From positions 1-64,000 of the forward strand of contig CANJLW010000016.1 of assembly GCA_947475245.1 (NCBI GenBank): a stretch of DNA of 64,000 nt, read 5' to 3'. The DNA comes from Acetobacteraceae bacterium. Lineage in GTDB: Bacteria; Pseudomonadota; Alphaproteobacteria; Acetobacterales; Acetobacteraceae. The notes beneath the pieces were generated by a model, which was not told where the DNA came from, searched no databases, and saw nothing but the letters and a program-made list of their open reading frames with translations. Within the stretch, counting starts at the first letter, position 1, and each line of letters begins with the position of its first letter. Of this stretch, positions 7,217 to 56,061 are shown in pieces. A program made the position numbers and the translations under genes.

Positions 7217-8860
7217 GTGCTACGATTTATCCTCGTCCGAGCGGCGGGCTGTGCGTTCTTGCTGATCGCCGGGATCGTCGCGGTCGCCGCCCCAGCCGCC
7301 GCGGACCCGACGATCAAGGGCTTCGTCTTCGTCCCTCAGGCAGCAAACCTGCAATCCGGCGGCGTTCCTGAACCCGCCGGACAGATCGACACCAGCGGTG
7401 TGCCGGCTCTCGATGACCCTGCCATCACGTCGATCATTCAACGTTACATCGGCTTGCCGATAGCCAATGTTCTTCTCGACTCACTGCGTACAGCGATCGG
7501 GAAACACTACCACGCCATCGGTCGCCCGTTCGTGAATGTCGTGGTGCCAAAACAGGACGTAACCAACGGGGTCCTGCAGATCGTCGTCATTGAGGGGCGG
7601 GTCGGTCAGGTTAAAGTCGAAGGCAACGAATGGTTCGATGAGGAGCAGTACCGCCGCAACCTGCACCTGGAACCCGGGGGACCGATCGACAACAACGCGC
7701 TCCAGGCCGATATTGATTGGATCAACCGCAATCAATATCGCAAGGCCACCGTTATCGCCTCCGAGGGCGTGGGGCCTGGCGCCACGAACATCACGATCCG
7801 CACCGAGGAACAATTTCCTCTGTCGGTGACATCCGGGATCGACAATTCCGGCAATGCGGGCACCGGTCTTTATCGGATCTATACAGGCCTGGACTGGGGC
7901 AATGCGCTGTGGCGCGGCGATTCCTTCAACTATCGCTTCACCACCACGCCCGAAATTCGCCCGCTTTATCAGCACGCGTTGTCCTATACGACCGACCTGC
8001 CATGGCGCGACACGCTGACCTTGTCGCTCAGCATCATCGACTCCAACAGCGCGACCAGTGGCAGTCCGATCGGCAGCAGCGGGCACACCGTGAATGCCGG
8101 TCTGCGCTATCAGGTTCCGCTGCCGGCCTGGGGCACGACGACGCACAGCCTGACGTTCGGTTACGATTTCAAAAGCACCAACAATAACACTCTGTTCGGC
8201 GGCACGTCGGTGTTCGCCACCACGACCGAGGTCAACCAGTTCGTCGGCCTCTATTCCGCGCAACGGCCGGACGCCTGGGGTTCGACCGGCTTGACCCTGC
8301 AACTCGTCGGCAGCCCCGGCGGGTTGAGCGCCCTGAATAACACCGCCACGTTCCAGACTCAGCAGGCCAACGCCGACGCCAGCTACATCTACGGCAGCAT
8401 CGGCGTCGAGCGCACGACAACAGTGGTACCCGTGATCACGTGGTTCACCAAGGCGACCCTGCAACTCAGCAATGCCACATTACTGCCGAGCGAGCAGATG
8501 GCGTTTGGCGGGGCGTCGTCCAATCGTGGATTTGTCACGTCCGGGGTTACGCGCGACAACGGCATTCACCTCATCAACGAATTCCGCGCCCCCACGCTTG
8601 GGGCCGCGATTGCTCGGGCCGTGGGCCTTGATAGCGAGACCCATCCGTTCGTGCCATTCCTGTTCGTCGATTACGGGGCGGGTTGGAACCATCGCGACAG
8701 CAGCGGGTCATGGGTGGCCATGACAACGATTGGGCCGGGGTTTTCGCTGCAACTGACACGCCATGCTTCATTTCGGTTTACTTACGGCATCCCGGTGCAG
8801 AAGGTGGGGCCGACGGGGCGGGAACTGCTGTCGCAGTTTTCGGTCAGTACCATATTCTGA
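7217..8860 (+). CDS. Two-partner-secretion outer-membrane transporter (TpsB, ShlB/FhaC/HecB family)
   Basis: Omp85-superfamily pore that secretes the adjacent TpsA. The 547 residues start with a signal peptide (cleavage near residue 29, after AAPAAA). One or two POTRA modules follow (about 65-185, including the GRVGQVKVEGNEWF stretch), and a 16-strand-type beta barrel fills the rest. The chain ends in phenylalanine (STIF), as outer-membrane proteins do. NRGF near residue 436 matches the conserved VRGF/Y loop motif of the family with a V to N change. The GTG start has GAGGA upstream and sits 37 bases after the tpsA-like stop, so the two form an operon. The gene looks intact, which leaves an orphan pore if the insertion has silenced its substrate. 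Confidence 0.92.
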   Translation: MLRFILVRAAGCAFLLIAGIVAVAAPAAADPTIKGFVFVPQAANLQSGGVPEPAGQIDTSGVPALDDPAITSIIQRYIGLPIANVLLDSLRTAIGKHYHAIGRPFVNVVVPKQDVTNGVLQIVVIEGRVGQVKVEGNEWFDEEQYRRNLHLEPGGPIDNNALQADIDWINRNQYRKATVIASEGVGPGATNITIRTEEQFPLSVTSGIDNSGNAGTGLYRIYTGLDWGNALWRGDSFNYRFTTTPEIRPLYQHALSYTTDLPWRDTLTLSLSIIDSNSATSGSPIGSSGHTVNAGLRYQVPLPAWGTTTHSLTFGYDFKSTNNNTLFGGTSVFATTTEVNQFVGLYSAQRPDAWGSTGLTLQLVGSPGGLSALNNTATFQTQQANADASYIYGSIGVERTTTVVPVITWFTKATLQLSNATLLPSEQMAFGGASSNRGFVTSGVTRDNGIHLINEFRAPTLGAAIARAVGLDSETHPFVPFLFVDYGAGWNHRDSSGSWVAMTTIGPGFSLQLTRHASFRFTYGIPVQKVGPTGRELLSQFSVSTIF

Positions 8861-8957
8861 ACGGCGAGGGGCAACGCGCGCTGACGGAACATGGCACGCA
8901 TGGCAGCCTTGCCGGTCAGAACGAGACATAGCCAGTCAGGTGAGGTATTCGCCCTCC

Positions 8958-10169
8958 ATGGATACGTCACCCGAGAATGCGATCGCGCTGAATGGCGCGA
9001 TGCGGAGAAATTTAGTTCTCCTGACCTGCTGCCAGGCCATCGGCCAGGCCGGCAACATCATCATGCTCAGCGCGACCGCGCTGTCCGTGATCACGTTCTT
9101 TCCCCATCGGGACCTCGCCACCTTACCCACGACGATGCAGCATATTGGCGTCATGCTGTCGGTCTTCCCGGCCGCCGCGCTGATGATGCGGATGGGCCGC
9201 GGCTTTGGCTTTCGCGTGGGCTCGGTCTTCGGCATGGCGGGAGCGGCCTGCTGCGGCCTGGGGGTCTACACAGCGACCTTCTGGTTGATGTGTCTGGGTG
9301 GTCTGCTTCTGGGTTACGCCGTCGCCAGTTTGCAGATGTACCGCTTCGCCGCGGTCGAACTGGTTCCGCTCTCCCACCGCGCCCGCGCCATCTCGTGGGT
9401 CACCACCGGCGGCGTGGTCGCCGGAGTATTGGGCGCCTCGATCACGCGGACAACCTTCGACGTCCTGATGCCACTCTACCTCGGCACCTACATCGCCATG
9501 ATCGTCATCCACCTCGTCGTCTTCATGTTGATGTCGTTCATCCGCTTCCCTCCGATGCCAAAGGCCACAAGCGTGGAAGGGCCGAAACGTTCGTTGTGGG
9601 AGATCGCGAGCCAGCCCCGCTTCGCGGCGGCTGTCCTGTCCAGCATGGCCGCCTGGGCGACGATGCTGTTCCTCATGAGTGCCTCACCACTGGCGGTCGT
9701 GGGCTGCGGTCTGCCGCAGACCGAGGCGCCTGTCGTCATCTTTCTGCACGTCATGGGCATGTTCGTGCCATCGTTCTTCACGGGCAATCTGATCACACGG
9801 TTCGGTACCGTGCGGGTGATGGCGGCCGGTGCCGCGATCTTGCTGGCCGGCATCCTGGTCGCGCTCGCGGGGATCGACGCATGGAATTTCCGAATTTCGC
9901 TCGCGCTGAACGGCGTCGGCTGGAACTTTCTGTTCGTCGGGGCGACGATGCTGGTCACCACATGTTACCGCCCGTCGGAGCGCGGCCGAGCACAGGCACT
10001 GAACGATTTCCTGATCTTCGGCACGACCGCGACCGCTAGTTTCCTGGCGGGCTTCCTGCAGAACCATCTGGGCTGGGTGCCTTTGAACCAGGCGGGACTT
10101 GGTCTGGTGGCGGTCGCGTTCCTGGCCGTTGTTTGGTTGCGCCTGCAACGGGAACCGGTGACGGCTTGA
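8958..10169 (+). CDS. MFS transporter, 12-helix type
   Basis: Inner-membrane major facilitator protein of 403 residues with about twelve hydrophobic segments. The start is set at ATG 8958, which has GAGGT about 12 bases upstream. The frame is open further upstream, but that part lies over the tpsB 3' end. Glycine-rich helices such as GVMLSVFPAAALMMRMGRG and the charged loop MRMGRGFGFRVG resemble the family's loop 2-3 motif. The substrate is unknown. It stands alone, with no obvious operon partner, and converges on the binding-protein gene at 10438. Confidence 0.85.
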   Translation: MDTSPENAIALNGAMRRNLVLLTCCQAIGQAGNIIMLSATALSVITFFPHRDLATLPTTMQHIGVMLSVFPAAALMMRMGRGFGFRVGSVFGMAGAACCGLGVYTATFWLMCLGGLLLGYAVASLQMYRFAAVELVPLSHRARAISWVTTGGVVAGVLGASITRTTFDVLMPLYLGTYIAMIVIHLVVFMLMSFIRFPPMPKATSVEGPKRSLWEIASQPRFAAAVLSSMAAWATMLFLMSASPLAVVGCGLPQTEAPVVIFLHVMGMFVPSFFTGNLITRFGTVRVMAAGAAILLAGILVALAGIDAWNFRISLALNGVGWNFLFVGATMLVTTCYRPSERGRAQALNDFLIFGTTATASFLAGFLQNHLGWVPLNQAGLGLVAVAFLAVVWLRLQREPVTA

Positions 10170-10437
10170 TACCACACCGCGGCCCATCTTCTGGCGATGG
10201 GGGTAGGAGGCGGGGCAATCGGGTGCGTCGAATGGGCAATTGGCTTGGAAGGCGCAGGTGAGACGCGGAGCATCCGTTGGCAGGGAGCGATCCTGCAAAC
10301 GACCTGGAGCGGGTATCAGTATAGCATTGATGTTACATCAATATTGAGTCGATCCGATTTGGAATCCGAATTATCGATTCACGGAGAGTGTTTGTTCTGG
10401 GTTGCTTTTCCTCCGCCAACCCCACCCCGCCCACCCG
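10170..10437. other. Convergent intergenic region with a perfect 17-bp palindrome
   Basis: No gene seen. The region holds ATTGATGT-t-ACATCAAT at 10326-10342, an 8-1-8 perfect inverted repeat in an AT-rich pocket. There is no T-run that would make it an obvious terminator. Both flanking genes end towards it, so an operator role for either is not obvious. Confidence 0.5.
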
Positions 10438-12021
10438 CTACATCCGCCGAACATTCCAGAAATACGGCCCCGTCGCCTCGATCAAGCCCGTCAGCGATTT
10501 CAGATACGCGGTGCGAATCTGGAACAGGCCCAGTGGAATACTGGGAACCTGATCGAAGGCACGCGCGTGGATGGCATTGCCCAAAGCGTCGCGACCGGCC
10601 TCGGTTTCCGCCAGCAGCCAGTCGCGGGTCATCTGCTCGATGATCTCGTCGGCGTACCAACCAAACCAGGCGGTCGAGCCCAACCCGCGGATCTGACTGT
10701 GTTCGGCCGGAGTAAATCGGATGGTAGACGGACCCCAGGTGTGGATAATCGACCAACCGCCCTTTTCCACGGGTTCGCGAGACGCGCGACGTTGCACCAC
10801 CGTTCCCCAGTCGGTCGCGATCAACTCGACGTTCATGCCGATCTTTTTCAGAATGTCGTGCGTCACGTCGCCCAGAGGGCCGACCGTTACGAGATCGGTG
10901 GGGTTCAGGATAACGACTTTCTCCCCCTTGTAACCCGACGTCTTCAGCATCGCGCGTGCCTTGTCGATGCTCTCCCCCATCGCCTGGGCGCCGACTTCCT
11001 GCCCGTAGCGCGATCCGCAGGGAAACATTGACTTGCAAAGCTTGAAGACGGCCGGGTCGTCACCGGTGACGGACACCATGTAATCGCGCTGATTGATCGC
11101 CATCAGCACCGCTCTGCGGACCTCAACGCTGTTGAACGGCGGGTGGAGGTGGTTAAATCGCAACACAGCATTGTACCCGGTTGGGTTCGCCAATCCGAAC
11201 CTGACGTCGGGGTCCCGTTTCAGCATCCCCACCAGGTCGGGTTGGACATGCTCGTACCAATCCACTTCGTCCGACATCAAGGCCCCGGCGGCGGTCGCCG
11301 AGTCCGGAATGGTCTTCCATTCGATCCGTTCGAAGTGTGCAACCTTGCCGCCCGACGTCCATTCCGCCGCCTCCTGACGCGGCACATAGGCCGCATTGCG
11401 TGCGTAGGCCGACGATGCGCCGACCACGAACTCGTCCTTAAGAAAGCGATACGGGCCGGAACCCGTGGTGTCGGCGATCTGCTTGAACGGGTCCGTCTTC
11501 GCGACGTGTTCCGGCATCATGAACGGCATCGATGCACCGCCGCGGGCAATCGCGGAAATGAACGTCGGCACCGGGCGGCGCATTTGGATACGGATCGTGC
11601 GGTCGTCCTTGACGCCCCATTCTTCGACGAACTGTCCGATTGTCTGACCGATGGTTTCCCGCGCGGCCCAGCGCTTCAGGCTGGGCGCGCAGTCCTGGGC
11701 GCGTACGGGTTCGCCATTATGGAATTTGAGTCCCTCGCGCAGAGTGATCAGATAGGTGCGGCCGTCGTCGGAGACGGTGAAGCCGTCCGCCATTTGCGGC
11801 TTTACTTCGAGTTTATTGTTCACACCGAACAGCAGATCATAGATCGCCCAGCCATGATTCACCGTCGGCTGAGCCGTGGTGAAAACCGGATCCAACAGTG
11901 ACAGAGAGGCCTGCGGCACGAAGCGCAGAACGCGCGGATCATGCTTTTTCGACTGTCCAACTGCAATTTTTGGCAGCAACGCGGCCGCGGCGGCGCCTCC
12001 TAATACTGAACGTCGGTTCAT
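10438..12021 (-). CDS. ABC transporter substrate-binding protein, family 5 (dipeptide/oligopeptide type)
   Basis: Periplasmic solute receptor of the DppA/OppA family, 527 residues, a normal length. The start is placed at ATG 12021 because GGGAGG lies directly upstream and the N-terminus NRRSVLGGAAAAALLP is a twin-arginine-type signal. The open frame extends 31 codons further, but that part is not signal-like. Family features include LDPVFTTAQ near the mature N-terminus, the YDLL segment, DDGRTYLITLREGLKFHNGEPV (shown here only in part as DDGRTYLITLREGLKF) and TGSGPYRF. No permease or ATPase genes adjoin it, so it is an orphan receptor in this window. The ligand cannot be told: family members bind peptides, nickel or sugars. 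Confidence 0.9.
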   Translation of the reverse strand: MNRRSVLGGAAAAALLPKIAVGQSKKHDPRVLRFVPQASLSLLDPVFTTAQPTVNHGWAIYDLLFGVNNKLEVKPQMADGFTVSDDGRTYLITLREGLKFHNGEPVRAQDCAPSLKRWAARETIGQTIGQFVEEWGVKDDRTIRIQMRRPVPTFISAIARGGASMPFMMPEHVAKTDPFKQIADTTGSGPYRFLKDEFVVGASSAYARNAAYVPRQEAAEWTSGGKVAHFERIEWKTIPDSATAAGALMSDEVDWYEHVQPDLVGMLKRDPDVRFGLANPTGYNAVLRFNHLHPPFNSVEVRRAVLMAINQRDYMVSVTGDDPAVFKLCKSMFPCGSRYGQEVGAQAMGESIDKARAMLKTSGYKGEKVVILNPTDLVTVGPLGDVTHDILKKIGMNVELIATDWGTVVQRRASREPVEKGGWSIIHTWGPSTIRFTPAEHSQIRGLGSTAWFGWYADEIIEQMTRDWLLAETEAGRDALGNAIHARAFDQVPSIPLGLFQIRTAYLKSLTGLIEATGPYFWNVRRM

Positions 12022-45284: not shown

Positions 45285-46652
45285 CTACCCAACCAAGCGG
45301 GCAAGCACCGAAAGATGTTCCGCCAATTGCCCCGCCTGACGACGAATATCCGGGACGGCGGTCATTTCCCAGAACGTGCCCTTTGTGATCGGTCCCACCG
45401 CGAATAACCGGCGAGAGAGCGCGCCCGTCCGGTCAAACATCGCGCAACTGGCGCTGACATCCAGGCCAAGCCGCAGAGGATCAGGCCGGACCGCGCCGTC
45501 GGCCAGCAGGCTCCGCATTAGCGGGTCTTGAATCCGATCGAAATCGGTCAGGGAACCCGAACAATTCACGACCCGCGCAACATGCAGCGAACGCAACATC
45601 TCCTCCCCCCGGGGACGGAACCGGACCTCGATCCGATCTTCGCCGGTAACGTATTCCCGCACTCGCCCCGCGGAAATGCGCAGCTGACCGCCGGCCCGGG
45701 CGGCGTCGATGCGATCGGCGACCGATCCCGCCATGCGGTGACGATGGGTATCCCACCAAGGCCGAGCATGGCGCAGGAAGCGCTTTCGGTCGGGGAATGA
45801 CAGGGATTGCCAGATATCCACCGTGAAGGGGCGCAGTTCGTCGACGACAGGCTGCCAACCGCTGCCTTCCGCGCTCGCGCGCCGAACTTCTTGCCGCAGA
45901 AACCGGGTCAGGGCCGTCAGGGATGTCGGGAACGGCGCATGCAACGGCGACGGGCGCGGCAGCGCCGCATGGCGTTGCGGCAACAGACCGCGCCGGGAAA
46001 GCGCGTGGATCGGTCCGGTATGCCCCCGGTCCAACAGCGAGATCGCGATGTCCACGGTCGTCAGCCCCGTCCCGATCAGCAAAACCGCGTCGTCCGATTT
46101 CAGGCCCGACAGCGCGGTTGGGGACCACGGGTCCGGGCGGTAACCGGGCGAGTCGTAAAAGGCCGGCGTCGCGACGGGCAAGGCCTCCGGCGGAAAATTC
46201 CCCGCGGCCAGGACGACGAAATCAGCCGTCACGCGTCGGCCTCGATCAAGCGTCAGCGCGAGCGGTCGGGACGCCGTGTCGATGGCGGTCACCGCGCCGC
46301 GAACCAGTGCCAACCGTCCGGGCTCGGATCGCTTCACCGCATCGTTCAGCAGCGACCGGACATAGGTGCCGAAGACGCGACGCGGCACAAAGGCCTCGGG
46401 CGTCGCGCCGGTTGCCGACTGACCGCGTAACCACGTCAGGAAATCGTCGGGGCGGTCGTGAAACGCGCTCATGCGTCCGGCCGGAACGTTCAGGATATGG
46501 CCGGCATTCCCCGTGGAATAAGCGAGGCCGGGCCCGAACCGGCCGGTGCGCTCGATCAGGATCAGCTTGACCGACGGCGGACAGCACCGAAGCAGGTGCA
46601 GTGTCAGAAGCGTCCCGCTGAACCCGGCCCCCACGATCGCGATTGTTGTCAT
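45285..46652 (-). CDS. FAD/NAD(P)-binding protein (YdhS/NAD_binding_9 type)
   Basis: A 455-residue flavoprotein. It begins TTIAIVGAGFSGTLLTLHLL, an FAD GxGxxG fold. PGLAYSTGNAGHILNVPAGRMSAF is the signature of the FAD-NAD(P)-binding family that includes E. coli YdhS. A second dinucleotide fold follows near residue 175 (VLLIGTGLTTVDIAISLLDRG). The function of the family is poorly defined. ATG 46652 begins the conserved domain; an extra 26-codon extension is unconvincing. It stands alone. Confidence 0.87.
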   Translation of the reverse strand: MTTIAIVGAGFSGTLLTLHLLRCCPPSVKLILIERTGRFGPGLAYSTGNAGHILNVPAGRMSAFHDRPDDFLTWLRGQSATGATPEAFVPRRVFGTYVRSLLNDAVKRSEPGRLALVRGAVTAIDTASRPLALTLDRGRRVTADFVVLAAGNFPPEALPVATPAFYDSPGYRPDPWSPTALSGLKSDDAVLLIGTGLTTVDIAISLLDRGHTGPIHALSRRGLLPQRHAALPRPSPLHAPFPTSLTALTRFLRQEVRRASAEGSGWQPVVDELRPFTVDIWQSLSFPDRKRFLRHARPWWDTHRHRMAGSVADRIDAARAGGQLRISAGRVREYVTGEDRIEVRFRPRGEEMLRSLHVARVVNCSGSLTDFDRIQDPLMRSLLADGAVRPDPLRLGLDVSASCAMFDRTGALSRRLFAVGPITKGTFWEMTAVPDIRRQAGQLAEHLSVLARLVG

Positions 46653-46849
46653 CTGACGGTTTGCCTTGCGATGGTACGTTGACCCAGGGACATTTAACGG
46701 CTCCCGCCACGCCGCGCCTAAGAAAAACATCGCGGCTCAACGCGCAGCGCGGACAGGACGCAGCCCCGTTGCGATACATCAATGCAGGGCGCCACCGGAC
46801 CCGATAGGCCTGTCGTCGCGCGGCGATACGCGGCGACCGGGAGAACACC

Positions 46850-47125: not shown

Positions 47126-48169
47126 ATGGCCTATCCCACCCATCTGCTACCCACCACGGTTGTCGGCAGCTATCCGCAGCCCGACTGGCTCGTGAACCGC
47201 GCGACGCTGCACCGCCACGGCGTGCCGCGCACCCATGCCCATGACATGTGGCGGGTGGAACCGGCATTGCTGGAACAGGCGCAGGACGACGGCACGATCC
47301 TCGCGATCCGCGATATGGAACGCGCGGGCATCGATATCGTCACCGACGGGGAAATCCGCCGCGAAAGCTATTCCAACCGATTCGCCCTGGCGTTGGACGG
47401 GATCGACGCCGACCAACCCGGCCAAATCCGGTCGGCGAACGGGCGCACGACCTCCGTCCCCCGCGTCGTGGGCCGCATCCGCCGCGTCGCGGACGTCGAA
47501 CAACGCGACGTGGAATTCCTGATGGCCAACACCGGCCATGCCACCAAGATCACGCTGCCAGGCCCGTTCACCCTGACGCAACAGGCGCAAAACGAGTTCT
47601 ACAAGGACGAAGAAGAACTCGCGATGGACTATGCCGTCGCGGTCAACCAGGAACTGCGGGCACTGAAGGCCGGCGGCGTCGATGTCGTGCAGTTGGACGA
47701 ACCATGGGTTCGAACCGCCCCGGAAAAGGCGGTGCGCTACGGCATCAAGGCCATCAATCGCGCGTTGGAAGGGATCGAGGGCCCGACCATCGTCCATCTG
47801 TGCTTCGGCTACGCCGCCGTGGTCGCCAACAAACCGTCGGGCTACAGCTTCCTGCCGCAACTCGCCGATACCGTTGCGCAGCAGATTTCAATCGAGGCCG
47901 CTCAGCCGAACCTCGATCTGGGCGTGCTGCGCGACCTGTCCGGCAAACGCATCATGCTCGGCGTCCTGGATTTGGGCGACCCGGCGGTGGAAACGAAAGA
48001 GCGCATCGCCGAACGCATCCGGGCCGGGCTGCGCTTTGTCGCCCCCGCGAACCTGATTCCGGCGCCGGATTGCGGCATGAAATACCTGCCGCGCGCCACG
48101 GCCTTCGGCAAGCTCAAGGCTTTGGCCGACGGGGCCGCGATCGTCAGGCGGGAACTGACGGGTTCATAA
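47126..48169 (+). CDS. MetE-like (cobalamin-independent) methyltransferase, short form
   Basis: A 347-residue single-barrel protein matching the C-terminal catalytic half of cobalamin-independent methionine synthase. It opens LLPTTVVGSYPQPDWL and has IDIVTDGEIRRESY, KITLPGPFTL, VDVVQLDEPW and the zinc-ligand regions HLCFGYA and PAPDCGMKYLPR. Short forms act on varied methyl donors or thiols and are not proven methionine synthases. Its 3' end overlaps the convergent LodB-like gene by 26 bases. Confidence 0.88.
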   Translation: MAYPTHLLPTTVVGSYPQPDWLVNRATLHRHGVPRTHAHDMWRVEPALLEQAQDDGTILAIRDMERAGIDIVTDGEIRRESYSNRFALALDGIDADQPGQIRSANGRTTSVPRVVGRIRRVADVEQRDVEFLMANTGHATKITLPGPFTLTQQAQNEFYKDEEELAMDYAVAVNQELRALKAGGVDVVQLDEPWVRTAPEKAVRYGIKAINRALEGIEGPTIVHLCFGYAAVVANKPSGYSFLPQLADTVAQQISIEAAQPNLDLGVLRDLSGKRIMLGVLDLGDPAVETKERIAERIRAGLRFVAPANLIPAPDCGMKYLPRATAFGKLKALADGAAIVRRELTGS

Positions 48170-49247
48170 CCAGCCGCCGCCGCCAGAAAGGTTGGTCCGC
48201 CCAGCGTCGCTCCATGCCGTACCACGCCGACAGGTGCGTTTGGTATGCGTCGCGGATCGAGGCTATTCGACTGGCATACTCCCCCAAGGCGGACCCATCG
48301 CCCGACAGATGCCGATCGGCCGATTCCGCCCCGGCCAGGCCGGTGTAGATCGCGTTGAACAGACCTTGGGAGGACAGCGGATCGAAGCTCAGCGCGGCGT
48401 CGCCGACCGCGAGCCAGGATGACCCAACCGGCCGATCAAGCATCGCGCCATGCGCCGCGCAAAACCCCGCCTCGACGCTGCCCGGCTCGATATCGTGCAA
48501 CAGGTCGCTCAGAATGCCGCGATCGCGCAGTCGGCCGCGCAATCGGTCGGGATCGGCTGCATCCTCGGCCGCGGGCAGGTCGGCGTCGGTGTGAAACGCG
48601 ATGACGCGACGGCCGGAGGGCAGGGGCGCCGTATACCACCAGCCATCCGCCTCCGCCTGAATATCCGTCAATCCAGACGCCATCGCATCGCGCTCGGCGC
48701 AGTAAAACCAACCGCAGACCAGCCTGTCGTCGGCGGTGCGTCGAGCGCCGAGGGAACGCGCGATCGACGCCGAACGCCCGGTTGCGTCGACGATCAGGCG
48801 TGCGCAGGCGGGGATCGCGCGCCCGTCGATCTCCAGTTCGAAGCACCATCCCGTTGGCGACTGCCTCAGATCGCGCGGAAAGGTTCCCGTCAGGATCGCC
48901 GCGCCGCGATCCCTGGCGTGGCCACGCAGCCATTGCTCGAACCGGGCGCGATCCAAATGCCAGCCCGCGCCGTCGAGGTCGCGTAACGCCTGCGTCTCCG
49001 TCGTTCCCGGCGAACCCCAGATCGATCGGTTGCCGTGGTGCGGCATGTGGCCCTGGGCGACGAACGAGTCCCACAGCCGCATGTCGCCGAACAGCCGCCG
49101 CACGGCGGGGATCAGCGATTCACCGATCCGCGCGCGCGGCTCGACCTGACGATCGATCAACAGAACGCGATGCAACGGCGCGAGGTTCAGCGCGCATACC
49201 GCGCCCGCAGGCCCCGCGCCGATGACGGCGATATCGGCTTCGATCAT
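48144..49247 (-). CDS. LodB-like FAD-dependent maturase for a quinone-cofactor oxidase
   Basis: A 367-residue flavoprotein of the tryptophan-halogenase/geranylgeranyl reductase fold. The FAD site is DIAVIGAGPAGAVCALNLAP, followed by RARIGESLIPAVRRLF and a later WLAVGDAALSFDPLSSQG segment. In LodA systems the LodB flavoprotein is needed to form the cysteine tryptophylquinone cofactor. The start at ATG 49247 overlaps the stop of the catalase::LodA gene (ATGA). The open frame continues upstream only across that gene. The context makes LodB function far more likely than halogenation; the halogenase WxWxIP motif was not seen. Confidence 0.85.
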   Translation of the reverse strand: MIEADIAVIGAGPAGAVCALNLAPLHRVLLIDRQVEPRARIGESLIPAVRRLFGDMRLWDSFVAQGHMPHHGNRSIWGSPGTTETQALRDLDGAGWHLDRARFEQWLRGHARDRGAAILTGTFPRDLRQSPTGWCFELEIDGRAIPACARLIVDATGRSASIARSLGARRTADDRLVCGWFYCAERDAMASGLTDIQAEADGWWYTAPLPSGRRVIAFHTDADLPAAEDAADPDRLRGRLRDRGILSDLLHDIEPGSVEAGFCAAHGAMLDRPVGSSWLAVGDAALSFDPLSSQGLFNAIYTGLAGAESADRHLSGDGSALGEYASRIASIRDAYQTHLSAWYGMERRWADQPFWRRRLVMNPSVPA

Positions 49248-52204
49248 CGCGGGCGGAGACGACGTGCCTTTTCGGTAACGCTCAGATCGATCTCTCCGCG
49301 CAGCGCCGAACCGAACGATGCCGCCGCGTGATGCCGGGCATAGTTCCGGTCCATGCTTTGATCGTCGATCTTGCGATGGCGGTCTTCGACCTGAATGAAT
49401 GCCGGGAACAGCTTTTGGCCCACGGCATCGGTTGGCCCGGGATTGACCTCCACCACGCCCAGATGATCGAAATGCGCGATCATGTTGTTGATCTGATCGG
49501 TGTAACTCGTGGTCCCCAGCGGCGCGATCCAGGCGGCGCGGTTCGCGAAGGCCGCCAGACGCTCTGCTTCGGGTTTGTGCGCGTTCACCACGATTTCGTA
49601 GTTTTCGCGCGTCATAACCTCGTTCGGCACGCGCGCGGGCCAGAACGACGGGACGTAGGGATCGTAGGTCTTGTCGTAGCCGGAGCGGCAACTGGCGGTA
49701 TCGGTTTGCCAGGGGATGGCCATCCAACGCGTGATGCCGCCGGGCAATTGGCCGTAGAGCGGTCCATTCGGGATCGTGACCGTGCTGCTGGTCAAAATCG
49801 CCCCCATGCCGGGTTCGATCCATCCCTTGGGCGCGTGCGCGAAGCGGAAGGGCAACATGTACATGCTGGATGCCCGAACCGGCCAGGTCATTTCACAGCC
49901 GGGATGGAACGCATCGGCGAGGCAATATTCCAACGCCGCCTTGGTCAGCATGTTCCCCTGTTCGGCGACCGGGACCTGATCGATGTCGGTATAGACCGGC
50001 AGTTGGCCCCAATCGTCGTCGAAGTCGCCCGCCGCCCACTGATCCAACATCGCAAGCTGAGTCGGCGACAGCGATGTGTATTGCAGGGGCGACTGAGTCG
50101 CCGGAACGCTCATCGCGTCGCCGTACAACCATGGCCATGGCATCGGCGACCAGGAATCCACATTCGGATGGCGGAAGGAATTTTTCAGCACGCGCCGGGT
50201 TTCGAGGTTCGCGACGCTGCGATCGTTCAGGCGCGCCGCCCATTCCGAGGAACTGAAGTCGTAAGCCGAATTCCATCCAAACCCCGCGGCAAAGCCGGCG
50301 TTGACCCATTGCAGCCGGGTCATCCGCTCAAAGATCGGGTAGATGTCCTGTGTGAAGGATGGCCGATCGGGCTTGTGCAGCGTGCCGTTCTGGATCGCGA
50401 CGTCGCGCATCAGGTCCCACATGGTGCGCACCGACTTGCATTGCGGACCGTAATCTGGCGGCGCGACCACCAGCCACGACGGCGTCACCGGCAACTCGAC
50501 GCCCTCGTACTTGACCGAAGCCGTTACGGGTCCGTCGGACGTGTCGTCATGCCAGCCGTCGTTATTGGCGAACGTGATCGCCATGCTGCCGTCAAACGAC
50601 GCCGACAGACCGCGCCCGCCGGTCACCAAAAGCCGCCCGTCCGGTTGGCACCACATCTTGCCGAGATAGACCGGGTCGCCCTGGTTCATGAATTGCCCCG
50701 CGACCATCTCCCGCGGTCGGGAGTGCTGGGCGGCATGAATGCTGTGCGCGCCGGCATCCAGGACCAGCGTCGACCGGTCGGAGACCGTCGGATTGCGCAG
50801 CGCGCTGGGATCGGCCGTCGACGCCAGCGGGATGTCGAGCGCGATCTGAAACTCGTACCAGGCAGCCTTCTTGTTCGCAAGGTGAACCGTCCAGGTAATA
50901 TCGGCGCCCGAGTCAGCGCCGGTCAGTTCGCGGACGATTTCATCCTTCGCATTGCACCCATAGATGCGAAAGCGAGCGGCCTGGGGATAGAGCCGGCCTT
51001 GCGCGTCTCGGTACGGGTTCTGGCCGGGTTTGTGATCGGCCATCAGCGGCGGCGGATGCGTGACTTCCGGGCCGACGACAAAGCCTTCCGGCGCATTGCC
51101 GACGCGGGCGACGCCGATCGACGGGTAGATGACGGCCTTGACGATGCAGGTGTCGGGATCGGCGGGCAGGGCGGGCGCTCGCGGCTGCTGGGGCTGTTCC
51201 AACGGCTGGCCGTTCGCCTGATGGCGCAGTTTGGCCCCATTGTCGTAGACGACCTTGCGGACCGCGGCGATGCTGCCGAGCGGCGCCTGTTCGACGGGTG
51301 TGCGCCAGATATTGAAGGATAGTTCCTGCCCGTACTCGGGCTGTCCACGCTCCCACACGTTTTGCGAGGGCAGGGACAATGTGCCGACCGGCACGTAGGG
51401 GTATTGGTCGGTCGGCCATTCCTCGGTCGCGCGATCCAGCGGGAAATGCGCCGATTTCGGCACGACCTGCACCATAAAGGTGAATTCATACGCCTCGGTC
51501 GTTGCCGACAGCCGATGCTGTAAGTCGAGCGCGAGGTAGTTCGGGTCGTCGGTCGCGACATTGATCGCGGGCGTCGCGCCGGCGGGCGGTTTCGGCACCA
51601 GCGCGTATTTCGCGACGTGGTCGTGGCCGAAGGAGAACGGCAAAATCGCCCAGTACTGGGTCGTCAGAACGCTGCCGTCGATCTGCGCCGACATCGCGTT
51701 CAGGATTTTGTTGGTCTTGGGATGCTTGGCCAGATATCCCGGATAGTCTTTCTGTACGACACCGGCATAGGTGAATTCGCACATCGACTGGGCATCGTCG
51801 ACGAAGAACACCGGGTAGTTTTGCATGATGAAGTCGGCGGTATCGCCGGTCTCCCCCATGGCGTTCACGCCGTCGACCCCCCACAGCTTCAGGCCGATGC
51901 CCAGCGTGGAGTTCAGATCGGGCGACGTCGGAGCAGTGTCGCTGGAGAAACGCATCCAGGCGGTCAATTGCTTTTTGGCGAAGACGCCGACCTGAAGCGC
52001 CTTCGGCAGGTCGTCGCGCATGGTCAGCGTGCCGTACGCCGCGCCGTGGAGCTTACGAAACACCGCCCGTTCAGCCGGGCGCTGGCCCAAGGCAAGCTTT
52101 TTCGCCTGGGCGATCTCGATGAACATCTCGTTCAGGCGCGCGGTCGCATCGGTCGCGCAGTCGAAACATCCGGGGATGGCAGGGTTTGCGGGGTCTTCGC
52201 TCAT
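49244..52204 (-). CDS. Catalase-like domain fused to LodA-like (CTQ) amino-acid oxidase
   Basis: A 986-residue two-domain protein. Residues 20-335 resemble heme catalases: RKLHG with catalytic His53, RFSSDTAP, DFIMQNYPVFF with Asn129, and RKVVY with Arg316/Tyr320 in the RxxxY heme-ligand spacing. Residues 353-986 are a LodA-like oxidase starting IVKAVIYPSIGVARVGN. Cys761 (ALEYC) and Trp827 (ITRWMAIPWQTD) are spaced 66 apart, close to the Cys-Trp pair that becomes cysteine tryptophylquinone in LodA. The oxidase would deaminate an amino acid and make H2O2, and the fused domain could remove it. ATG 52204 has GGAGGA 5 bases upstream. No signal peptide. The LodB-like gene follows in an ATGA overlap. 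The amino-acid substrate is unknown. Confidence 0.85.
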   Translation of the reverse strand: MSEDPANPAIPGCFDCATDATARLNEMFIEIAQAKKLALGQRPAERAVFRKLHGAAYGTLTMRDDLPKALQVGVFAKKQLTAWMRFSSDTAPTSPDLNSTLGIGLKLWGVDGVNAMGETGDTADFIMQNYPVFFVDDAQSMCEFTYAGVVQKDYPGYLAKHPKTNKILNAMSAQIDGSVLTTQYWAILPFSFGHDHVAKYALVPKPPAGATPAINVATDDPNYLALDLQHRLSATTEAYEFTFMVQVVPKSAHFPLDRATEEWPTDQYPYVPVGTLSLPSQNVWERGQPEYGQELSFNIWRTPVEQAPLGSIAAVRKVVYDNGAKLRHQANGQPLEQPQQPRAPALPADPDTCIVKAVIYPSIGVARVGNAPEGFVVGPEVTHPPPLMADHKPGQNPYRDAQGRLYPQAARFRIYGCNAKDEIVRELTGADSGADITWTVHLANKKAAWYEFQIALDIPLASTADPSALRNPTVSDRSTLVLDAGAHSIHAAQHSRPREMVAGQFMNQGDPVYLGKMWCQPDGRLLVTGGRGLSASFDGSMAITFANNDGWHDDTSDGPVTASVKYEGVELPVTPSWLVVAPPDYGPQCKSVRTMWDLMRDVAIQNGTLHKPDRPSFTQDIYPIFERMTRLQWVNAGFAAGFGWNSAYDFSSSEWAARLNDRSVANLETRRVLKNSFRHPNVDSWSPMPWPWLYGDAMSVPATQSPLQYTSLSPTQLAMLDQWAAGDFDDDWGQLPVYTDIDQVPVAEQGNMLTKAALEYCLADAFHPGCEMTWPVRASSMYMLPFRFAHAPKGWIEPGMGAILTSSTVTIPNGPLYGQLPGGITRWMAIPWQTDTASCRSGYDKTYDPYVPSFWPARVPNEVMTRENYEIVVNAHKPEAERLAAFANRAAWIAPLGTTSYTDQINNMIAHFDHLGVVEVNPGPTDAVGQKLFPAFIQVEDRHRKIDDQSMDRNYARHHAAASFGSALRGEIDLSVTEKARRLRPR

Positions 52205-52330: not shown

Positions 52331-53830
52331 CTAATCCGGCTTCAACTGCGTCCGGGAACTCAGACGCGCCGGCAGGCCCTGGGATATCAGTAATGTGATC
52401 AGCGCCAGGATCAGCGTCAGCCAATAGGCGTTGTGCAGCGACCGCGCGACGATATCCGTCAGGCGGGCGATTTCGGCCGGGGGCAGGGCAACGCGGGCCA
52501 CCACATCCAGCAGCCGATCGACGGCCCGCGCGGCGTCGGGGTCGATGCGCAGCATGGTGAAATTCAGCACCGCGCCGCACCCGGCCGCCCCCACCGCCTG
52601 ACCGACAAAGCGCAGAAACATGCTCGACGACGTGGCCGCGCCGCGCTGCCGCCACGGCACGGATGCCTGGATCGAGACGATGAACACCGTGTTGCACAGC
52701 CCCATGCCGATCCCGATGACGAAGGAACCGACACTGGCCCAGAGCGGCCCGTGCTCCGGCCGCAGCAGCACCAGCATCAGGCAGCCAAGGACGAGCGACA
52801 ACGCGCCGATCCCGGCGGTCAACCGATAACTGGTGGCCGCCATCAAGCGCGCACCGAGGATGCTGGCGAGCGCCCAACTGACGGACATGGCGCCGAGGAC
52901 CAGGCCGCCGGCGATGGCGGTTTGGCCCATCGCACCCTGGACATAGGCGGGCAGGAAGGCCGAGACCCCCATCATCACCGCGCCGGCGAAGCAACTGCCC
53001 AGGCTGCCGACCACGACGATGCGATTGGCGCGCCATAATTCCAGCGGCAGCATGGGTTCCGGCGTCGTCCGTTCGTGCAGGATCAGCGCGATCAGAGCCG
53101 AACAACCGACGACAAGCAGGGCGACGAACCAGGGCGTGGTGAGTTGTCCGCCCTGGACCAACGTCAGCATCAGACTCCCGAAAGCGAGCAGCAACAATAT
53201 GGAGCCGATCCAATCGACCTTGTGGCGGCGCGGCTGCACGTTTTCTTTCAGGAACAGCGCCAGCATCGCGATGGCGGCGATGCCGATCGGCAGGTTTACC
53301 CAGAACACCACGCGCCAACTGACGTATTGGATCAAAAAGGCACCCAGAGACGGCCCGATGACGGCGGAAACGCCAAAGACCGACGACACCAGGCCCTGGA
53401 CCTTGCCCCGTTCCGTCGGCGTGTAGATATCCCCCAGGATGGTCGCCGCGATCGGTTGAATGGCGCCAGCGCCGATGCCCTCCAACGCGCGAAAGCAAAT
53501 CAGCGACGGCATGTCCCAGGCAAGACCGCACAGGGTGGAACCGGTCAGGAACAGGCCCGTGCCGACAAAGATGACGGGGCGGCGTCCATACAGGTCCGCC
53601 AGACGCCCGTAGATCGGAATGCTCACCGCCTGGGTCAGCAGATAGATGGTGAAGACCCAACTGAACACGTTGAAGCCGCCGAGATCGGCGACAATGGTCG
53701 GGATCGTCGTCGCGACGATGGAGCTTTCGACCGCGGCCATGAAGGTCGCCATCAGGCAGGCCGCCAGCACCAGGCGCCGCCACGATCCGTCCGTGTCCCC
53801 CGCGGGGCGCGGTGCTTTGCTGTCTTGCAT
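52331..53830 (-). CDS. DHA2-family (EmrB/QacA-type) MFS efflux transporter
   Basis: A 499-residue fourteen-helix drug:H+ antiporter. ATFMAAVESSIVATTIPTI is motif D1 of the family. GRLADLYGRRPVIFVG is motif A, and GPSLGAFLIQYVSWRVVFWVNLPIG is motif C plus the following loop (quoted in part: GPSLGAFLIQYVSWRVVFW). No HlyD partner gene adjoins it. The start at ATG 53830 is preferred. It is divergent from the binding-protein gene at 53993. Confidence 0.92.
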   Translation of the reverse strand: MQDSKAPRPAGDTDGSWRRLVLAACLMATFMAAVESSIVATTIPTIVADLGGFNVFSWVFTIYLLTQAVSIPIYGRLADLYGRRPVIFVGTGLFLTGSTLCGLAWDMPSLICFRALEGIGAGAIQPIAATILGDIYTPTERGKVQGLVSSVFGVSAVIGPSLGAFLIQYVSWRVVFWVNLPIGIAAIAMLALFLKENVQPRRHKVDWIGSILLLLAFGSLMLTLVQGGQLTTPWFVALLVVGCSALIALILHERTTPEPMLPLELWRANRIVVVGSLGSCFAGAVMMGVSAFLPAYVQGAMGQTAIAGGLVLGAMSVSWALASILGARLMAATSYRLTAGIGALSLVLGCLMLVLLRPEHGPLWASVGSFVIGIGMGLCNTVFIVSIQASVPWRQRGAATSSSMFLRFVGQAVGAAGCGAVLNFTMLRIDPDAARAVDRLLDVVARVALPPAEIARLTDIVARSLHNAYWLTLILALITLLISQGLPARLSSRTQLKPD

Positions 53831-53992
53831 CTTTGTTGTCCTCGGGCGGTCCGTTCCCCGGACGAAGTTCTGTCATCCCAACGCGATCGAGGCAATCGAG
53901 GTATATTCCAAGCATCGCGGGAAACCGCTACCATCCAACCAGCGTCGCGGAACCGGCGTATCGCCCAGAAGGGCGAAACAGGGAGGTATGGA

Positions 53993-55246
53993 ATGCTAGC
54001 TCGTCTTCGACGCGCGCTCTGCGCGGTCATGATGCTCGGATTTTTGCTGCCAGGTCAGGCGGCAGTGGCGGCCGACACGATTCCCATTGCGTTTATCGGA
54101 CCGTTCTCCGGTGCCTTCGCGCCGCAGGGAGACGCGTTCCTGAAGCAGTTGAAGTATGCCCTTGACGTCGTGAACGCCAACGGCGGCGCGCTGGGCAAGA
54201 AGTTCGAACTCGTGACGTTCGACGACAAGCTGCAACCGTCCGAAGCGATCATCGCGCTGAAATCCGCGACCGATCGGAACATTCAGATCGTCATTCAGTG
54301 CATCGGCTCCAACGTCGCCGCGGCGATGATCGACGGCGTGGCCAAGCACAACGCGCGTAACCCGGACAATCGCGTCCTGTATGTCAACTGCGCCGCGCTG
54401 GCGAACGAGTTGACCAACGAGAAGTGCGACTTCTGGCATTTCCGCTTCGCCGCCACGGTCGGCATGCGGGTGGAAACCTTGATCCGCGCGCTGCCGAAGA
54501 ACCTGTCCACCGTTTACCTGATGAACCAGGACTACCTGTATGGTCAGTCGGTTCAGGCGGACATGAAAACCTACCTGGCCAAGTTCCGCCCCGACATCAA
54601 GATCATCGGCGACGAACTCGTGCCGCTGGGCAAGGTCAAGGACTTCTCGCCCTACGTCTCCAAGATCAAGCAGTCCGGCGCGCAGGCGCTGCTGACCTCC
54701 AACTGGGGCGTCGACTTCAACCTGCTGCTGAAGTCCGGCGTCGAAACCGGCCTGGATGTCAGCTACTACACGCTGTCCGCGCATCTGAACGGTGGCCCGG
54801 TCGCGATGGGTGAAGCCGGTGTGGATCGTGTTCACTCCGCTCTCGACTTCCACCACAACATCGCGGCCGAAATCGGCAACGAAGCCGGCGACAAGTGGAT
54901 TGCCGGGTTCCGCGCGCTGTATCCGGAATTCGACTTCACCTGGATCAACTACCGCACGATGTTCGAAATGCTCCAGATCGCCGTTCAGAAGGCCGGCTCG
55001 ACCGACCCGCTGAAGGTGGCCCTGGCGCTGGAAAATCTCCAGACGAAAGACAGCCTGGGTCAGCCCGCCACGATGCGTAAGGACGATCACCAACTGCTGA
55101 GCGCCTTCTACGCGGCGAAGTTCACCAAAGGGGTCAAGTATGACTCCGAAAAGACCGGCTTCGGCTGGAAGACCGAACTGACGCTGCCGGCGTCGGAACT
55201 GTCGCAGCCGACCACCTGCAAGATGAAGCGGCCCGCCGGCGCGTAA
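53993..55246 (+). CDS. Branched-chain-amino-acid-type ABC transporter substrate-binding protein (LivK-like)
   Basis: A 417-residue periplasmic receptor. The signal peptide ends AAVAA and mature IPIAFIGPFSGAFAPQGDAFL follows (part quoted: IPIAFIGPFSGAFAPQG). VNANGGALGKKFELVTFDDKL and the mid-domain YLMNQDYLYGQSVQADMKTYL (quoted to the family core YGQSVQAD) fit type I periplasmic binding folds. ATG 53993 has GGGAGG 6 bases upstream. The frame is open for 300 codons upstream, but that part is antisense to the efflux gene. No permease or ATPase genes are near. It is followed by the Asp/Glu-racemase-like gene 92 bases on, so the ligand may be a carboxylic acid. Confidence 0.9.
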   Translation: MLARLRRALCAVMMLGFLLPGQAAVAADTIPIAFIGPFSGAFAPQGDAFLKQLKYALDVVNANGGALGKKFELVTFDDKLQPSEAIIALKSATDRNIQIVIQCIGSNVAAAMIDGVAKHNARNPDNRVLYVNCAALANELTNEKCDFWHFRFAATVGMRVETLIRALPKNLSTVYLMNQDYLYGQSVQADMKTYLAKFRPDIKIIGDELVPLGKVKDFSPYVSKIKQSGAQALLTSNWGVDFNLLLKSGVETGLDVSYYTLSAHLNGGPVAMGEAGVDRVHSALDFHHNIAAEIGNEAGDKWIAGFRALYPEFDFTWINYRTMFEMLQIAVQKAGSTDPLKVALALENLQTKDSLGQPATMRKDDHQLLSAFYAAKFTKGVKYDSEKTGFGWKTELTLPASELSQPTTCKMKRPAGA

Positions 55247-55338
55247 TCGCTCGACCGGACCACGATCACGGTGCGGCGTCGTCCTTGCGGGCGGCGCCGT
55301 TTTCGTTTCAGGGAACCAAACCCGAGGAAACCGGACCT

Positions 55339-56061
55339 ATGACCATCAGGCATTTCGGCGTTCTGATCCCATCGACCAACACCACGGTGGAGATCGAATA
55401 CACCCGTCTGCTGCCCCCCTGGCTGCAATGCCATGTCGGCCGTCTCGGCAAGGGCGGCGACACCCCGTTTTCCCCCAGCCGGGACGAGGACGTGTCCTAC
55501 CAATCCCAACTGCTGGGCGATGCAAAGGTGGAGGTCGTGGCCCTCGCGCAGACCTCCGCCAGCCTGTTCGACGACGATTACGACCTGAATACGGTGCGGC
55601 GCATGACACAGGGCGCGGGCGTACCGTCCCTGACCTCCGCCCAGGCGATCGGGCGATCGGTGCGGGCCTTGGGCGCGAAGCGGATCGGCATCGTCACCCC
55701 ATACTCGGCCGCGGCGATCGCGCGCGCGAAGCACTATTTCGAAAGCAAATACGGTCTGGAGGTCATCGCCATGGAAGGCTTCGGCGCCACCGACGCCTAT
55801 GCCATCGGCGCGCTCGGCCCTGACAAGGCGCGGGAGGCATTCACCCGGATCGATCGGGCGGAGATCGAAGTCCTGATCGTGCCCGGAGGCAACTTCCCGA
55901 CCATGCCATGGATCGCGGACTGGGAGCGTGACTTCGACAAACCCGTGATCACGACGAATCAGGCCGCGCTGTGGGCCATGCTGCGGGTGATGAACATCAC
56001 CAAGCCGATCGAGGGCTTCGGGCGGCTGCTGGAAGACCTGCCGGAAATGACGGACGACTGA
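55339..56061 (+). CDS. Asp/Glu racemase-superfamily protein (maleate isomerase/arylmalonate decarboxylase-like) lacking both catalytic cysteines
   Basis: A 240-residue two-domain protein. The start IRHFGVLIPSTNTTVEIEY, the GVPSLTSAQAIGRSVRALGA block and KPVITTNQAALWAMLR match the maleate cis-trans isomerase group. Catalytic cysteines are normally found in a (A/Y)CTS motif and an (S/P)CTN-like motif. Here they read AQTS (Gln71) and PGGN (182-185). The only cysteine, Cys31, is elsewhere. The protein may catalyse a different reaction or be a binding protein. ATG 55339 begins the domain, and the upstream frame is not conserved. It follows the LivK-like receptor. Confidence 0.85.
   Translation: MTIRHFGVLIPSTNTTVEIEYTRLLPPWLQCHVGRLGKGGDTPFSPSRDEDVSYQSQLLGDAKVEVVALAQTSASLFDDDYDLNTVRRMTQGAGVPSLTSAQAIGRSVRALGAKRIGIVTPYSAAAIARAKHYFESKYGLEVIAMEGFGATDAYAIGALGPDKAREAFTRIDRAEIEVLIVPGGNFPTMPWIADWERDFDKPVITTNQAALWAMLRVMNITKPIEGFGRLLEDLPEMTDD

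What the first reader, a model, noticed from the sequence alone, without database searches (positions are those of the whole stretch)
49244..52204. Catalase-like domain fused to a LodA-like quinone oxidase
One 986-residue chain keeps the catalase His53/Asn129 pair and an Arg316-xxx-Tyr320 heme motif, then a full LodA-like domain with Cys761 and Trp827 spaced as in the cysteine tryptophylquinone pair. LodA enzymes release H2O2, so the fusion looks like a self-protecting or peroxide-controlled oxidase. I do not know of a described catalase::LodA fusion.
Basis: partly seen in the sequence, partly recalled or inferred. Interest (0 to 1): 0.87.

Follow-up and report, generated by a model that had tools for sequence, protein, structure and literature searches.

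The report
Catalase-fold heme domain fused to LodA
A bacterial enzyme joins a heme domain built like catalase to a quinone-containing amine oxidase; this pairing was already catalogued in 2015, but the heme domain appears to have lost catalase's own catalytic residues, so it probably does something other than destroy peroxide.

Summary
The fused gene is real: 986 codons on the minus strand (52204..49244), followed in ATGA overlap by a LodB/GoxB-like flavoprotein (49247..48144). It is not two genes joined by error: 66 of the 80 best related loci carry the fusion, in five phyla. Nor is it new: Campillo-Brocal et al. 2015 (PMC4417212, Table 3) list 21 pfam00199::LodA fusions, all in their uncharacterised group III, two from Azospirillum strains whose proteins are 73% identical to this one. 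The tryptophylquinone pair is Cys839/Trp855, not Cys761/Trp827. Catalase's distal His and Asn correspond to Phe49 and Gln128, not His53/Asn129. Phe49 is in 69 of 69 readable fused rows and 0 of 48 stand-alone relatives; Gln128 in 70 of 70 and 1 of 48. Arg316/Tyr320/Arg327 are invariant. So the domain probably binds heme but is unlikely to work as a catalase. LodA-linked catalase-fold domains form one clade, including one unfused lodA-lodB-heme gene row; the LodA halves do not. My preferred reading, inferred, is an oxidase-heme tandem in which the heme site uses the peroxide or product made next door, as in coral allene oxide synthase-lipoxygenase.

The parts
49244..52204 (-). lodA-like fusion gene, 986 aa: catalase-fold heme domain plus LodA/GoxA-like CTQ oxidase
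   Evidence: no stop inside; same architecture in 66 of 80 named loci
51170..52204 (-). N-terminal catalase-fold domain (residues 1-345): heme scaffold R46, R85, S87, R316, Y320, R327; distal positions F49 and Q128 instead of catalase His/Asn
49244..51145 (-). C-terminal LodA/GoxA-like domain (residues 354-986)
49640..49690 (-). Cys839 to Trp855, predicted cysteine tryptophylquinone precursor pair (D835 = GoxA D678)
   Evidence: alignment to GoxA and LodA chains; C839 and W855 in 67 of 67 rows; model confidence low here
48144..49247 (-). LodB/GoxB-like FAD protein, predicted CTQ maturase; ATGA overlap with the fusion gene
   Evidence: NCBIfam GoxB 237 bits and LodB 208.9 bits, both under their cut-offs of 400; lodB-like gene downstream in 79 of 80 named loci
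52331..53830 (-). MFS transporter gene, same strand, 126 bp upstream; may share the transcript
   Evidence: Pfam MFS_1; linkage not tested in relatives

Best explanation
A two-centre oxidase. The LodA-like half forms cysteine tryptophylquinone from Cys839/Trp855, matured by the adjacent LodB-like flavoprotein, and oxidises an amine or amino acid (substrate unknown) with release of H2O2. The N-terminal catalase-fold half binds heme through Tyr320 but has a remodelled distal side (Phe49, Gln128), so it would not dismute peroxide as a catalase does. It more likely uses the peroxide, or the oxidised product, in a peroxidase/peroxygenase-type or rearrangement step. Shown by comparison: fusion, fold match, residue identities, maturase linkage, single lineage of the heme domain. 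Inferred: CTQ formation, heme occupancy, H2O2 hand-over, and the heme reaction.
Against: No experiment. Coral allene oxide synthase keeps catalase's distal His and Asn, so it is a precedent for the hand-over, not for this pocket. A Phe distal residue could also mean a poorly reactive heme. The distal Asn is missing in the stand-alone relatives too (I 16, V 14, F 13 of 48), so only the His-to-Phe change and the Gln are special to the LodA-linked set. Pfam's Catalase model sees the domain weakly or not at all in the further LodA-linked proteins scanned: L036 19.5 bits, below the cut-off; L083, L092 and the split gene no hit. 48 of the 66 fused loci are from one phylum, Bacteroidota, so counts are not independent. 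Close LodA relatives without the heme domain exist (L038, 70% identical), so the oxidase does not need it. No second substrate, product or pathway gene was identified.
Confidence: 0.45

Rival explanations
1. Self-protection: the heme domain is a working catalase that destroys the H2O2 made by its own LodA half.
For: Catalase fold and intact proximal Arg/Tyr motif; LodA-type enzymes release H2O2 (PMC4699246, start of abstract). Asn mutants of catalase and coral allene oxide synthase keep the essential chemistry (title in a reference list), so Gln128 alone would not exclude activity.
Against: Catalase's distal His is Phe in 69 of 69 readable fused rows; a canonical catalase is encoded elsewhere in the genome; none of the unfused LodA loci examined had a catalase-like gene in the DNA held.
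Confidence: 0.2
2. The heme domain serves CTQ maturation or takes electrons from CTQ, as di-heme MauG does for TTQ or the cytochrome subunit does in quinohemoprotein amine dehydrogenase.
For: A di-heme protein does act in tryptophylquinone biogenesis (MauG, PMC7876137 passages); every domain of this clade that was sampled comes from a gene fused to LodA or beside lodA and lodB.
Against: Unfused relatives up to 70% identical keep a LodB-like gene without any catalase-like gene in the fetched DNA; Cys and Trp are kept in the unfused rows of alignment A1 too. GoxA and LodA mature without such a domain (recalled). A Tyr-ligated heme is a poor electron acceptor (recalled).
Confidence: 0.12
3. The heme domain is a structural, oligomerisation or peroxide-sensing module with little chemistry of its own.
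For: Fused and unfused LodA halves interleave, so the domain was gained or lost several times without loss of the oxidase; distal base absent.
Against: Invariant heme-binding residues and a strict new distal signature over five phyla suggest a selected reaction or ligand.
Confidence: 0.2

Closest known systems
pfam00199::LodA fusions, LodA group III (Campillo-Brocal et al. 2015, PMC4417212)
   Same: Same domain order and length range (963-1072 aa); the proteins of Azospirillum lipoferum 4B and sp. B510, both in Table 3, are 73% identical to this one, and the 4B gene has its flavoprotein gene directly downstream (annotated there as tryptophan 7-halogenase).
   Different: Only the host is new. 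The passages and sections read do not mention the Phe/Gln distal substitution or an unfused three-gene form.
PlGoxA glycine oxidase / LodA lysine epsilon-oxidase
   Different: Below NCBIfam cut-offs (397.9 of 750; 181.6 of 600); GoxA Tyr766/His767 not conserved in the alignment; extra N-terminal domain.
Mycobacterium avium 33-kDa catalase-related protein (3e4w) and y4iL-like proteins
   Same: Best profile match in PDB (1.1e-19); short catalase core only.
   Different: 3e4w and 38 of 48 stand-alone relatives keep the distal His; the other 10 have Asn there; the LodA-linked ones have Phe.
Coral allene oxide synthase-lipoxygenase (3dy5, 1u5u)
   Different: Lipoxygenase instead of CTQ oxidase; keeps distal His67/Asn137 (PMC5617202).

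Membership tests
LodA/GoxA CTQ oxidase family | LodA_N and LodA_C domains | tested here: met
   251 and 136.1 bits, cut-offs 26.3 and 25
LodA/GoxA CTQ oxidase family | Cys and Trp aligned with LodA C516/W581 | tested here: met
   C839 aligns with LodA C516 (profile position 831 to chain residue 516) and with GoxA C682; W855 with GoxA W697. The alignment to LodA W581 itself was not printed
LodA/GoxA CTQ oxidase family | lodB-like gene downstream | tested here: met
   P0002 matches GoxB and LodB models, below their equivalog cut-offs; ATGA overlap
LodA/GoxA CTQ oxidase family | CTQ actually formed, oxidase activity | not testable with these tools
   needs protein
GoxA glycine oxidase (NF038173) | equivalog cut-off 750 bits | tested here: not met
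   397.9 bits
LodA lysine 6-oxidase (NF038172) | equivalog cut-off 600 bits | tested here: not met
   181.6 bits
Monofunctional heme catalase | catalase core fold | tested here: met
Monofunctional heme catalase | proximal Tyr and heme-binding Arg residues | tested here: met
   R316, Y320, R327 = R363, Y367, R374 of the genome's own catalase
Monofunctional heme catalase | distal His and Asn | tested here: not met
   Phe49 and Gln128 (weakly)
cd08152 (y4iL-like catalase-related) | CDD model match | not testable with these tools
   CDD not on hand; PMC4417212 says such fusions match it; best PDB relative by profile is 3e4w
Catalase::LodA fusion of group III (2015) | N-terminal pfam00199 plus LodA | tested here: met
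   73% identical to proteins of A. lipoferum 4B and Azospirillum sp. B510, strains named in Table 3
Catalase::LodA fusion of group III (2015) | place in group III of the 2015 tree | not tested
   that tree was not rebuilt; group III is inferred from the Table 3 relatives

The most novel reading that the evidence does not exclude
The LodA-linked catalase-fold clade is a distinct heme enzyme that lost catalase's distal His/Asn (Phe/Gln instead) and uses H2O2 made by the CTQ half of the same chain to oxidise that half's own product: a self-supplied amine oxidase-peroxygenase, a bacterial counterpart of coral allene oxide synthase-lipoxygenase.
Probability: 0.25. Interest if true: 0.75.

Novelty: new member of a known kind. 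Interest (0 to 1): 0.4.

Why it matters
The fusion was catalogued in 2015, in a group then said to be uncharacterised. The conserved loss of the catalase distal residues argues against the obvious self-protection idea and makes a concrete test possible: what does a Phe/Gln catalase-fold heme do beside a peroxide-making quinone site? A positive answer would give a compact, self-fuelled oxidation catalyst and a first function for LodA group III.

Tried and rejected
Frameshift or assembly joining: rejected; the same fusion occurs in 66 of 80 named loci and third-position GC is even along the gene (0.82 and 0.79).

Exact identity with the 986-aa Sphingomonas sp. S17 entry of Table 3: not pursued. 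The LodA part of the same-genus genome G320 is identical to that of Acidisphaera sp. S103, which points to Acetobacteraceae.

Reading the heme pocket and the CTQ loop in the model: not possible. The tool returned no coordinates, and residues 834-857 have pLDDT under 50.

Own-genome catalases: the PF00199 search listed one canonical catalase and did not list the fusion itself, though hmmscan gives the fusion 31.9 bits; so that search can miss weak members. A first alignment to that catalase used a wrong-frame ORF as the reference; its 'canon' column is void and was replaced.

Split form as a common form: of 78 genomes (G677 and relatives) two had a match and only G677's was LodA-linked. Of the 30 loci handed out from 38 matching phylum genomes among 398, 27 had no LodA or LodB in the ~1.5 kb flanks held. 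The split gene branches inside the fused clade, on a long branch, so it may be a fission rather than the ancestral state.

LodA trees: one search used 70 of 94 rows (near-duplicates dropped) and needs 6 changes; it counted L003 and L091, both cut by contig ends, as unfused. One search dropped these and other long, broken or near-duplicate rows (44 rows, 4 changes, AU p 5e-46 against one fused clade). Both are quick trees with long-branch warnings. The catalase-fold trees (63 rows; 87 rows) are quick trees too, likewise thinned, with the same warnings.

Sampling limits: one search kept the best 80 of 165 relatives. The 48 stand-alone relatives come from the window's family and phylum only. The 70 fused rows hold 68 distinct sequences (L002/L150 are one genome); 48 of the 66 named fused loci are Bacteroidota. 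L098 is broken into two frames, L076 is truncated, and L067 or L076 accounts for the one Asp and the one gap at position 53.

Full report
WHAT IS THERE. The coordinates hold one open frame on the minus strand, ATG at 52204 to TGA at 49244, 986 aa. GGAGG lies just upstream, and the stop overlaps the start of the next gene as ATGA. Pfam finds Catalase (residues 42-145, weak), LodA_N (360-580) and LodA_C (703-855). NCBIfam, at E 0.001, gives only the GoxA and LodA models, below their cut-offs, and no catalase model. The next gene, 49247..48144, is a FAD protein that matches the GoxB, LodB and QhpG maturase models, below their cut-offs. An MFS transporter gene lies 126 bp upstream on the same strand. 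The window is contig 16 of a 5.2-Mb genome with one match to the protein. A same-genus genome (G320) has a LodA part identical to that of Acidisphaera sp. S103, so the organism is probably an Acetobacteraceae member (inference).

REAL AND WIDESPREAD. A scan of a collection of 84,980 species genomes found 165 relatives and kept the best 80. In 66 of the 80 the catalase-fold part is fused to LodA; in 14 the LodA part stands alone, one of them (L091) cut by a contig end. The 66 are 48 Bacteroidota, 14 Pseudomonadota, 2 Acidobacteriota, 1 Actinomycetota and 1 Myxococcota. A LodB-like gene follows in 79 of 80; the exception ends at the contig edge. A sequencing artefact is excluded.

ALREADY DESCRIBED. 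Campillo-Brocal et al. 2015 (PMC4417212; sections 7 and 11 and search passages read) list 21 LodA-like proteins with N-terminal pfam00199, matching cd08152/y4iL. All are in group III, in which, the paper says, no protein was characterised. Azospirillum lipoferum 4B and sp. B510 are in that table, and their proteins are 73% identical to this one. Five searches of the open library for work on such fusions showed no later study among the titles listed; the lists were capped at 20 of 24, 10 of 47 and 10 of 17, and most subscription journals are not held.

THE QUINONE PAIR. Profile and phmmer alignments place LodA Cys516 on Cys839. PlGoxA D678, named in PDB titles, fixes the numbering, so its C682 and W697 fall on C839 and W855 (that these two form its CTQ is recalled). 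C839, W855, D835 and H767 are present in 67 of 67 aligned fused rows. GoxA active-site residues H583 and F316 have counterparts (H767, F545); Tyr766/His767 do not, so the substrate is unlikely to be simply glycine (inference).

HISTORY. The LodA-linked catalase-fold domains (38 fused and 1 separate) are one side of a branch with SH-aLRT 100 against 48 stand-alone ones (a smaller tree gave 99). The LodA halves of fused and unfused proteins interleave: 6 changes in the larger tree, 4 in a cleaned one, where one fused clade is rejected (AU). The simplest reading is one union followed by several losses of the heme domain, for example in Acidisphaera (L038), which sits beside this protein; the trees cannot by themselves tell gain from loss. 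Unfused loci show no catalase-like gene in the DNA held, up to 8 kb on each side for named loci and about 1.5 kb for unnamed ones.

HOW IT MAY WORK. The LodA half makes H2O2 (family knowledge). A catalase needs its distal His (recalled); a 2008 title cited in PMC5617202 says Asn mutants keep the essential chemistry (reference list seen), so Phe49 is the weightier change. I therefore favour a heme site that uses peroxide or product instead of dismuting peroxide, with coral allene oxide synthase-lipoxygenase as the architectural precedent (PMC5617202, start of abstract and passages). The coral domain keeps His and Asn, so it is no precedent for the pocket. The genome's separate catalase weakens the need for self-protection.

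VERDICT. Ordinary as an architecture, since it has been known since 2015. The conserved distal replacement and the clade-wide LodA link are the useful additions. I found them in none of the papers whose passages or sections I read (four: PMC4417212, PMC4699246, PMC5617202, PMC7876137), nor hinted at in the titles and abstract starts listed.

Noticed in passing
An NPP1-family gene follows at 9752-10540.
   Followed up: partly
L155 (Sinorhizobium medicae pSU277_3) 3977-6932: Apparently decayed fusion: catalase-fold part annotated alone as hypothetical protein, LodA part truncated downstream.
   Followed up: partly
   Followed up: no
L036:7899-11156 and other Bacteroidota fusions: C-terminal extension of roughly 130-150 aa beyond the part aligned to this protein; no Pfam match there in L036.
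   Followed up: no
L098 (Pseudoalteromonas rubra S2676) 7845-10973: Fusion gene broken into two frames, whereas strain S2599 (L058) has it open.
   Followed up: no
L061:12622-14130 (-): A 503-aa protein without Pfam match recurs near the fusion in 12 loci of the neighbourhood clustering.
   Followed up: no
window 45285-46730 (-), 47126-48169 (+), 53075-55243 (+), 55285-56061 (+): Neighbours by Pfam: FAD-NAD(P)-binding protein; cobalamin-independent methionine synthase-like; periplasmic binding protein; arylmalonate decarboxylase or Asp/Glu racemase-like.
   Followed up: no
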